From a virus, in IMG/VR virus record IMGVR_UViG_3300002835_000790, positions 1-29,646 of that record: a DNA stretch of 29,646 bases. One strand, written 5' to 3'. The notes beneath the pieces are model-generated. The model searched no databases, was not told where the DNA came from, and saw only the letters and a program-made list of their open reading frames with translations. Both the position numbers and the translations under genes were made by a program. This document shows, one piece after another, positions 18,995-21,254 of this stretch. Within the stretch, counting starts at the first letter, position 1; the number at the start of each line of letters is the position of its first letter.

Positions 18995-19033
18995 TTCAGA
19001 GGGAATGGCTAGGGTAGCTCCCGAAAAGACGCT

Positions 19034-19085
19034 TCATCACCGTCCTGCCTTATCCCACCACAGTGATGACCTTTTGATGGAAGGT
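19034..19085 (+). promoter_or_regulatory. Possible structured leader of the replication operon
   Basis: TCATCAC (19034-19040) can pair with GTGATGA (19063-19069). Alternatively ACCTT (19069-19073) can pair with AAGGT (19081-19085), which would hide the AAGG Shine-Dalgarno of the next gene. The two helices share base 19069 and so compete at one position. A translational switch is possible but untested. Confidence 0.3.
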
Positions 19086-20115: not shown

Positions 20116-20517
20116 ATGGAAATTTCCCAAACTTTTACGTTTGAAGCTGCTCATACGTTAGCTCGGTTAGTTCCATTAGTTGAATATGAGCCAAGCATGA
20201 GGATTCATGGACATTCTTATGTTGCTACGGTTGCGGTCAAGGGTGAGATGGGTGCGGATGGGATTCTGCAATTCTTTAGGCTTCCTAAAAACAAACGGCA
20301 AAAAGTTGACTTGTTTTACTTGCGGAAAGAAATCCAAGAGGTCAGAGCAAAGTTAGACCATCGTTTCCTTAATGAAATTGAAGATTTGCCGCACCAGACG
20401 CTAGAGGCACTATGCGTATTCATCTTCAATCATATTAACCAGTATTTCCCGGTCGCTTGGGTCAAGGTTGAGAGACCGTTAAGCGGAGATGCTTGCCGAT
20501 ACGATGGTGTCAAATGA
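20116..20517 (+). CDS. queD: QueD-like 6-carboxytetrahydropterin synthase homologue
   Basis: This 133-residue protein has the QueD/PTPS scaffold. FTFEAAHTL supplies zinc ligand His13, and IHGHSY supplies His31 and His33. The catalytic pair Asp81-His82 lies in LDHRFLNE, followed by VERPLSGDACRY near the end. QueD makes 6-carboxytetrahydropterin, the second intermediate of the 7-deazaguanine (queuosine) pathway. Two oddities stand out: the nucleophilic Cys, four residues before the HGH motif in E. coli QueD, is Ser27 here; and a basic insert of about 12 residues (QFFRLPKNKRQK) splits the region after strand 2. It is coupled by ATGA to a DpdA-like gene. Confidence 0.8.
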   Translation: MEISQTFTFEAAHTLARLVPLVEYEPSMRIHGHSYVATVAVKGEMGADGILQFFRLPKNKRQKVDLFYLRKEIQEVRAKLDHRFLNEIEDLPHQTLEALCVFIFNHINQYFPVAWVKVERPLSGDACRYDGVK

Positions 20518-21254
20518 TTCACTATCACGGGCTTCCGATTACACCGGCAACAGCAGCTCTGAGGGCTATAAGTGGCGGTCATGCGTTTGTTTCCTTTAGA
20601 CATTCAGACCAACTAACGATAGCGTTGGAGGCTTCTCAGTCTTTTGCTGTAGATAACGGGGCTTTCAGCGCGTGGAAATCTGGCAACCCTGTAGAAGATT
20701 GGAACCCATTTTATGAATGGGTGGATAGATTGAGGCGTTATCCAACGTTTGATTTTGCTGTGATCCCTGACGTTATTGACGGTGATGAAAAGGCAAATGA
20801 TGATCTATTAGACCAATTCCCGTTTGCTATTTACGTTGGCGCACCAGTATGGCATTTGCATGAGAGTCTAGAAAGATTGGACAGGTTAGCAACAAAGTAT
20901 CCAAGGATTTGCTTAGGTTCATCTGGTGATTTTGCAAACATTGGAACCCCTGCTTGGTGGAGTCGGATGGCTGAGGCAATGGATGTTATTTGCGACGATG
21001 AAGGATTGCCAAAGACCAAGATTCACGGTTTGAGGATGCTAAACCCGGATGTGTTTACGAGATTTCCATTTGCTTCTGCTGACAGTACAAACATAGGTCA
21101 AAACGTAGGAATTGATAGCGCATGGCGAGGAACTTATACGCCACCAACAAAGGAGGCAAGAGCTGCTCTTATGCGAGAGCGTATCGAATCACACCAAAGC
21201 GCACAGGTATGGGATAGAAAAATTGCGCCTATTCAGGTAAATTTATTTGATTAA
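20514..21254 (+). CDS. DpdA-like (TGT-related) DNA deazaguanine transglycosylase candidate
   Basis: This 246-residue protein starts at ATG 20514, coupled to queD; a TTG at 20493 is less likely. Segments in order are SFAVDNGAFSAWKSG, TFDFAVIPDVIDGDE, PVWHLHESLERL, ICLGSSGDF and KIHGLRMLNPDV followed by PFASADSTN. This TIM-barrel order, with an Asp in the last motif as possible nucleophile, resembles tRNA-guanine transglycosylases and their DNA-acting phage relatives (DpdA), which swap guanine for a 7-deazaguanine base. The queD neighbour strongly supports that reading. The usual zinc-binding cysteines of TGT are not seen, so the assignment is inference. Confidence 0.6.
   Translation: MIHYHGLPITPATAALRAISGGHAFVSFRHSDQLTIALEASQSFAVDNGAFSAWKSGNPVEDWNPFYEWVDRLRRYPTFDFAVIPDVIDGDEKANDDLLDQFPFAIYVGAPVWHLHESLERLDRLATKYPRICLGSSGDFANIGTPAWWSRMAEAMDVICDDEGLPKTKIHGLRMLNPDVFTRFPFASADSTNIGQNVGIDSAWRGTYTPPTKEARAALMRERIESHQSAQVWDRKIAPIQVNLFD

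What the first reader, a model, noticed from the sequence alone, without database searches (positions are those of the whole stretch)
20116..21254. queD-like and DpdA-like genes: candidate 7-deazaguanine DNA modification with a partial pathway
The two genes overlap by ATGA inside the replication operon. QueD feeds the preQ0 pathway, and DpdA-like TGT relatives insert 7-deazaguanines into phage DNA, which protects against restriction. No FolE, QueE or QueC gene is seen in this window, so the phage would rely on host enzymes or on genes in the missing part, and the base installed cannot be predicted.
Basis: partly seen in the sequence, partly recalled or inferred. Interest (0 to 1): 0.75.

Follow-up and report, generated by a model that had tools for sequence, protein, structure and literature searches.

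The report
Two-gene phage DNA guanine-modification cassette
This phage carries two overlapping genes that probably help swap some guanines in DNA for a 7-deazaguanine, using one early-step enzyme of its own (QueD) plus the inserting enzyme (DpdA) and relying on the bacterium for the steps in between; the same pair recurs in dozens of other phages.

Summary
20116-20517 encodes a 133-aa QueD-like (PTPS) protein and 20514-21254 a 246-aa DpdA-like protein; they overlap by ATGA. The DpdA-like protein is in the same PHROG family as the DpdA of phages 9g, CAjan and Salmonella 7-11, keeps the TGT-type aspartates and the histidine (9g His196) that separates DpdA from DpdA2, and is modelled as a TGT-like barrel. 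Its relatives include MED16, 7-11 and CAjan, whose DNA contains 7-deazaguanines by mass spectrometry. The QueD-like protein is unusual: Ser and Arg stand where E. coli QueD has Cys27 and Glu110. This is not decay: all 80 of the closest bacterial relatives share it, most lie next to queE, and in six genomes it is the only PTPS protein. In IMG/VR, 79 of 80 loci with this QueD type also carry a DpdA-like gene, normally overlapping it. No FolE or QueE was found in 37 contigs with the pair, and no QueC. Best reading: a minimal two-gene 7-deazaguanine DNA-modification cassette that boosts and then taps the host preQ0 pathway (dPreQ0 or dADG). Related cassettes carry a second partner of unknown function (phrog_37496) predicted to fold like archaeosine synthase QueF-L. 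New variant of a known kind.

The parts
20116..20517 (+). QueD-like protein (PTPS / COG0720 family), 133 aa, SxxxHGH subtype
   Evidence: PF01242 E 4.6e-18; TIGR03367 56.7 bits, below the 89.25 cut-off; best PDB relatives are P. aeruginosa and E. coli QueD; groups with Burkholderiales QueD in a tree, 97/97 support
20194..20196 (+). Ser27 codon of the QueD-like protein, at the place of E. coli catalytic Cys27 (Zn ligands His13, His31, His33 kept)
   Evidence: alignments; Ser in 80/80 bacterial and 70/75 viral relatives; the other 5 viral ones have Tyr
20473..20475 (+). Arg120 codon of the QueD-like protein, at the place of E. coli Glu110 (pterin anchor)
   Evidence: alignments; Arg in 80/80 bacterial and 74/75 viral relatives, gap in one
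20514..21254 (+). DpdA-like 7-deazaguanine DNA transglycosylase, 246 aa, no zinc motif
   Evidence: phrog_887 E 8.3e-72, the same family as 9g, CAjan and 7-11 DpdA; tblastn to MED16 40.9%, 7-11 36.4%, CAjan 26%; profile match to 9g/CAjan/7-11 DpdA, probability 99.7, E 3e-26; AlphaFold pLDDT 92.2; Foldseek
20652..20654 (+). Asp47 codon of the DpdA-like protein (DNGAFS motif; matches 9g LDSGAFS and TGT TDSGGFQ)
   Evidence: invariant in 48 relatives; alignments
21024..21026 (+). His171 codon of the DpdA-like protein = 9g DpdA His196 (reported absent from DpdA2)
   Evidence: PMC6884629
21081..21083 (+). Asp190 codon of the DpdA-like protein (ADST; matches 9g CDSS, proposed nucleophile)
   Evidence: invariant in 48 relatives; alignments
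20514..20517 (+). ATGA stop/start overlap of the two genes (translational coupling)
   Evidence: sequence; overlap kept in nearly all relatives

Best explanation
The two genes form a minimal 7-deazaguanine DNA-modification cassette. The QueD-like enzyme (a betaproteobacterial SxxxHGH-type QueD) makes 6-carboxy-tetrahydropterin and so pushes host flux towards preQ0. Host FolE supplies its substrate, and host QueE and QueC finish preQ0, with 7-amido-7-deazaguanine as a QueC intermediate. DpdA then exchanges guanine in DNA for preQ0 or its amide by a TGT-like base-exchange reaction, giving dPreQ0 or dADG. Shown here: gene identity, conserved active-site residues, predicted fold, recurrent overlapping pairing, and absence of the other pathway genes. 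Inferred: enzyme activities, host supply, the base installed, and any anti-restriction benefit.
For: DpdA: same PHROG as 9g, CAjan and 7-11 DpdA; direct tblastn hits to MED16, 7-11 and CAjan, all with 7-deazaguanine DNA by LC-MS/MS (PMC8306585, PMC6884629); profile match E 3e-26; catalytic Asp and His196 equivalents invariant; TGT-like barrel, arcTGT 1j2b second by E-value with TM 0.58, and named phage queuine tRNA-ribosyltransferases among the best viral fold matches. QueD: PTPS family; same Ser/Arg subtype in 80/80 best bacterial hits, a QueE-type ORF beside it in 68/80 by motif; sole PTPS gene in 6 of 14 genomes, all six with QueC and TGT. Pair: 79/80 loci of this QueD type have the DpdA-like gene, in two gene orders. 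No FolE or radical SAM in 37 pair contigs and no QueC above cut-off. Other DpdA relatives sit beside a YhhQ-type transporter or a QueF-L-like gene.
Against: The QueD-like protein lacks the catalytic Cys and the pterin-binding Glu of characterised QueD and fails NCBI's cut-off. All pair contigs, the window included, are IMG/VR records that may be fragments. Modification in phages with a related DpdA and no own preQ0 genes is low (0.02-0.13% of G), so a protective role is unproven. A direct profile comparison with ordinary bacterial TGT was not significant.
Confidence: 0.72

Rival explanations
1. The QueD-like protein has a new activity. With Ser and Arg in place of Cys27 and Glu110 it acts on a 7-deazaguanine intermediate (for example as a 7-carboxy-7-deazaguanine decarboxylase like the recently proposed DpdL), so DpdA installs an unusual base such as plain 7-deazaguanine.
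For: Both catalytic/anchor positions are replaced throughout the subtype; the gene occurs beside DpdA without QueE or QueC. That phages with dDG/dCDG carry a DpdL decarboxylase is recalled from Cui et al. 2023 (not held in the library; a lead, not a test).
Against: The same Ser/Arg form is the only PTPS protein in six Burkholderiales genomes that also carry QueC and TGT and usually lies next to queE, as an ordinary QueD would. It also sits between QueE and QueC in a bacterial-type dpd island (L112).
Confidence: 0.13
2. The cassette modifies tRNA or raises host queuosine during infection (an auxiliary metabolic role), and DNA is not the target.
For: QueD belongs to the queuosine pathway; the PHROG annotation reads 'queuine tRNA-ribosyltransferase'.
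Against: No PF01702 match and no CxCxxC zinc motif; it groups with DpdA proteins shown to act on DNA. 9g DpdA does not complement E. coli delta-tgt, and CAjan dpdA is needed for DNA modification (PMC6884629).
Confidence: 0.06
3. The pair is a remnant: DpdA works at trace level on host preQ0 and QueD has no measurable effect, so there is no useful protection.
For: 7-11 and MED16 DNA carry only about 0.02% and 0.13% of G as dADG, and MED16 DNA was still cut by most enzymes tested (PMC6884629, PMC8306585).
Against: Overlapping QueD-DpdA pairs in two gene orders, several clades and dozens of contigs, with invariant active-site residues, indicate continued selection for joint function.
Confidence: 0.09

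Closest known systems
Phage DpdA (9g / CAjan type, phrog_887; Hutinet et al. 2019, PMC6884629)
   Same: Same PHROG family, TGT-like barrel, DxGAFS aspartate, His196 equivalent, CDSS/ADST aspartate; encoded beside a 7-deazaguanine pathway gene
   Different: Shorter (246 against about 310 aa), 26% identity to CAjan; no FolE, QueE, QueC or amidotransferase encoded
Singleton DpdA phages (Pantoea MED16, Salmonella 7-11; PMC8306585, PMC6884629)
   Same: Closest relatives with measured DNA modification (40.9% and 36.4% identity); the host is thought to supply preQ0
   Different: They have no QueD (7-11 tested; MED16 as reported in the paper); the window adds an overlapping QueD-like gene
Phages with a partial preQ0 set (Pantoea Vid5 with three of four genes; Mycobacterium Bipper without QueC)
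   Same: Incomplete pathway completed by the host or by unknown genes
   Different: Here only QueD is kept, as a recurrent two-gene overlapping module
QueD / PTPS-I (E. coli QueD)
   Same: PTPS family, Zn-binding His triad, LDHxxLN motif
   Different: SxxxHGH instead of CxxxHGH, Arg instead of Glu110, insertion before the VDLFYLR helix; the type found in Burkholderiales queE-queD operons

Membership tests
DpdA (phage, 9g type) | Profile membership with characterised DpdA | tested here: met
   phrog_887: window 5e-74, 9g 2.5e-100, CAjan 2.3e-98, 7-11 1.1e-75; hhalign 99.7%, E 3e-26
DpdA (phage, 9g type) | TGT-like TIM barrel | tested here: met
   AlphaFold pLDDT 92.2; Foldseek PDB: arcTGT 1j2b rank 2, TM 0.58, other hits are generic TIM barrels; BFVD best hits include phage queuine tRNA-ribosyltransferases
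DpdA (phage, 9g type) | Catalytic aspartates (DSGAFS and CDSS motifs) and His196 | tested here: met
   D47, D190 and H171 invariant in 48 relatives and aligned to the 9g DSGAFS motif, CDSS motif and H196
DpdA (phage, 9g type) | Inserts 7-deazaguanine into DNA | not testable with these tools
   needs LC-MS/MS of nucleosides
DpdA2 (nt-1 type) | No His196; separate family | tested here: not met
   His171 present; nt-1 record has no phrog_887 match
Bacterial/archaeal tRNA TGT | PF01702 match and CxCxxC zinc site | tested here: not met
   no PF01702 match in the window; the protein has no CxCxxC
QueD (PTPS-I / TIGR03367) | PTPS family with Zn-binding His triad and LDH motif | tested here: met
   PF01242 4.6e-18; His13, His31, His33 and the LDH motif kept
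QueD (PTPS-I / TIGR03367) | CxxxHGH catalytic Cys, terminal Glu, equivalog score | tested here: not met
   Ser27 and Arg120; 56.7 bits against a cut-off of 89.25. Burkholderiales proteins of the same subtype also fall below it
QueD (PTPS-I / TIGR03367) | Same subtype sits in a queuosine operon and serves as the sole PTPS protein | tested here: met
   68/80 with a QueE-type ORF by motif; sole PTPS in 6/14 genomes that have QueC and TGT
[quoted passage not shown]
   only QueD and DpdA in the window and in the pair contigs

The most novel reading that the evidence does not exclude
The Ser/Arg QueD subtype in phages has moved to a new reaction on a 7-deazaguanine intermediate, so that these two-gene cassettes install a base other than preQ0 or its amide, with QueD and the QueF-L-like phrog_37496 protein acting as base-choosing partners of one DpdA family.
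Probability: 0.13. Interest if true: 0.75.

Novelty: new variant of a known kind. Interest (0 to 1): 0.52.

Why it matters
Phages that carry DpdA without a preQ0 pathway were the largest and least understood group in the 2019 survey (PMC6884629). The data here split that kind of DpdA into recurring modules: DpdA with an overlapping QueD, DpdA with a QueF-L-like protein that databases list as unknown (phrog_37496), all three together, or DpdA beside a precursor transporter. That turns 'modification status cannot be predicted' into specific, cheap tests, and it points to a QueD form without the textbook catalytic Cys that Burkholderiales appear to use as their QueD.

Tried and rejected
(1) I first read the Cys-to-Ser and Glu-to-Arg changes as loss of QueD function; rejected after 80/80 bacterial relatives showed the same residues, mostly beside queE, and six genomes had it as the only PTPS gene. 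(2) Membership in DpdA2: rejected (His171 present; nt-1 not in phrog_887). (3) A hidden QueC: weak hits in four DpdA contigs were below cut-off and matched only the first 66-69 positions; rejected. (4) A QueF-L-like gene beside MED16 or 7-11 dpdA as the source of dADG: none found. (5) Direct profile comparison with ordinary TGT gave nothing significant, probably because the alignments were shallow; the link runs through characterised DpdA and the fold. (6) The paper on DpdL and DpdA3/4 (Cui et al. 2023) is not in the library, so that comparison rests on memory. (7) Rfam search around the pair found no riboswitch.

Full report
OBSERVATION. The two genes are real and intact. The QueD-like ORF is 20116-20517 and the DpdA-like ORF 20514-21254, both on the + strand, overlapping by ATGA. 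They sit in a replication block between an O-like initiator and primase fragment upstream and a DnaB-like helicase downstream. The record is a 29,646-base IMG/VR virus record, probably a fragment. It has no match to TGT (PF01702), QueC, radical SAM or FolE.

THE DpdA-LIKE PROTEIN. Pfam and NCBIfam give no family, but PHROGs gives phrog_887, 'queuine tRNA-ribosyltransferase', E 8e-72. A search of reference phages with that family hits DpdA of 9g, CAjan and Salmonella 7-11, and not the DpdA2 phage nt-1. tblastn links it directly to MED16 (40.9%), 7-11 (36.4%) and CAjan (26%), three phages whose DNA contains dADG or dPreQ0 by mass spectrometry (PMC8306585, PMC6884629). A profile of 48 relatives matches a profile of 9g, CAjan and 7-11 DpdA with probability 99.7 and E 3e-26. 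Asp47 (DNGAFS), His171 and Asp190 are invariant in the 48. His171 aligns with 9g His196, the residue reported as conserved in DpdA and absent from DpdA2. The AlphaFold model is confident (pLDDT 92.2). Against the PDB the archaeosine TGT 1j2b ranks second by E-value and has the highest TM-score on the query (0.58) of the 50 matches listed; the others are mostly generic TIM barrels. Against viral models the named best hits are phage queuine tRNA-ribosyltransferases.

THE QueD-LIKE PROTEIN. It is a PTPS-family protein that keeps the Zn-binding histidines and the LDH motif but has Ser27 for Cys27 and Arg120 for Glu110 of E. coli QueD. 9g and CAjan QueD keep the canonical CxxxHGH. At first sight this looks like loss of function. 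A scan of bacterial genomes changed that: all 80 best hits, mostly Burkholderiales, have the same Ser and Arg, and 68 have an ORF with the QueE cysteine motif directly upstream (a motif scan, not a profile match). In six of 14 genomes tested it is the only PTPS gene, and those six carry QueC and TGT. The NCBI QueD model scores these host proteins below its cut-off too. The simplest reading is that SxxxHGH proteins are the QueD of these bacteria and that the phage gene is of that type. In a tree the window's group is joined with Burkholderiales (Sphaerotilaceae) QueD with 97/97 support, and phage QueDs fall in several clades (few columns, many forks unresolved). Whether a Ser enzyme makes CPH4 has not been shown to my knowledge; this is the weakest step.

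THE PAIR RECURS. A scan of IMG/VR for this QueD type, without using DpdA, returned 80 loci. The DpdA-like gene is present in 79; the exception is a 5.6-kb contig (L199). The genes overlap in nearly all, with QueD upstream in one set (window type) and downstream in another, larger set. In 37 contigs with the pair, no FolE or radical SAM protein was found, and no QueC above cut-off. The contigs may be fragments, but a number exceed 30 kb. Among the 80 best DpdA relatives chosen without regard to partner, 39 have QueD, the QueF-L-like gene or a transporter beside DpdA.

OTHER PARTNERS OF THE SAME DpdA FAMILY. About a quarter of the 80 best DpdA relatives have, overlapping or just upstream, an 80-115 aa protein. 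Pfam and NCBIfam do not know it and PHROGs lists it as phrog_37496, unknown function. Its model (pLDDT 97.3) has the beta-beta-alpha-alpha-beta-beta topology of the T-fold. Its 12 best PDB matches are all archaeosine synthase QueF-L (5jyx/5k0p, TM up to 0.78, best E 2e-4). An invariant Cys-Pro and two Glu line up with B. subtilis QueF Cys55, Glu78 and Glu97 (the sequence-level score is weak and the Glu78 register is by eye). All 77 further loci found with it carry the DpdA-like gene. Three contigs (L197, L198/L310, L201) have the overlapping order QueF-L-like, QueD, DpdA. Acinetobacter phage AB3P2 and Pseudanabaena phage Pam5 have a VUT/YhhQ-type transporter gene just downstream of DpdA (the AB3P2 gene is annotated hypothetical and was assigned by resemblance to the Pam5 one); YhhQ is a known preQ0 transporter (PMC5372724). 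Each partner independently ties this DpdA family to 7-deazaguanine chemistry.

MECHANISM. Host FolE makes dihydroneopterin triphosphate. Phage QueD converts it to CPH4. Host QueE and QueC make 7-carboxy-7-deazaguanine, its amide and preQ0. DpdA swaps guanine in DNA for preQ0 or the amide. Precedent for host supply: 9g DpdA alone in E. coli put 84-790 dPreQ0 per million nucleotides into plasmid DNA, and modification required host queD when Gat-QueC was co-expressed (PMC6884629). MED16 with DpdA alone had 354 dADG per million nucleotides (PMC8306585). An own QueD would be expected to raise that low level; this is inference. dPreQ0 or dADG is the predicted base; dG+ and dPreQ1 are less likely because no QueF-L-like partner or amidotransferase was seen in the window.

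VERDICT. Observation confirmed; interpretation supported, with the corrections that the QueD is of a non-canonical but widespread type, that the partial pathway is typical of the cassette, and that protection from restriction is unproven. A new variant of a known kind. The QueF-L-like identity of phrog_37496 is the most surprising by-product.

Noticed in passing
L055:9756-10004, L197:1263-1508, L310:3998-4249, L115:2756-3001 (Pseudomonas phage Epa33) and about 100 other loci: phrog_37496 (unknown function), an 80-115 aa protein next to DpdA, is predicted to have the T-fold of archaeosine synthase QueF-L with an invariant Cys-Pro and two Glu; it may tailor preQ0 into G+, an amide or preQ1.
   Followed up: partly
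L116-L195 (bacterial genomes, mostly Burkholderiales): The chromosomal QueD of many Burkholderiales has Ser for the catalytic Cys and Arg for the pterin-binding Glu (SxxxHGH) and scores below NCBI's QueD cut-off although it usually lies beside queE and can be the only PTPS gene.
   Followed up: partly
L112:984-5079 (MT835580, human faecal record): A bacterial-type dpd island with DpdA, two DpdB-like ORFs, QueE, a Ser/Arg QueD and QueC in a row (assigned by eye).
   Followed up: no
L108:4720-5193 (Acinetobacter phage AB3P2) and L114:3935-4468 (Pam5): VUT/YhhQ-type transporter genes directly after the DpdA-like gene, suggesting precursor salvage; the AB3P2 gene is annotated hypothetical.
   Followed up: partly
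L266-L270: A divergent PTPS variant next to DpdA with Tyr at the catalytic Cys place (DYPQVHGH) and no C-terminal Cys.
   Followed up: no
window 19002-19069 (+): Sub-threshold match to the Rfam family int-alpA RNA (26.8 bits against a gathering score of 35.8, E 0.012).
   Followed up: no
L109, L113 and other lambdoid Salmonella, E. coli and Shigella phages: DpdA-like genes in the early regions of temperate phages (SPN3UB, SfI, BTP1), annotated hypothetical or queuine tRNA-ribosyltransferase; no PTPS gene in SPN3UB or SfI.
   Followed up: partly
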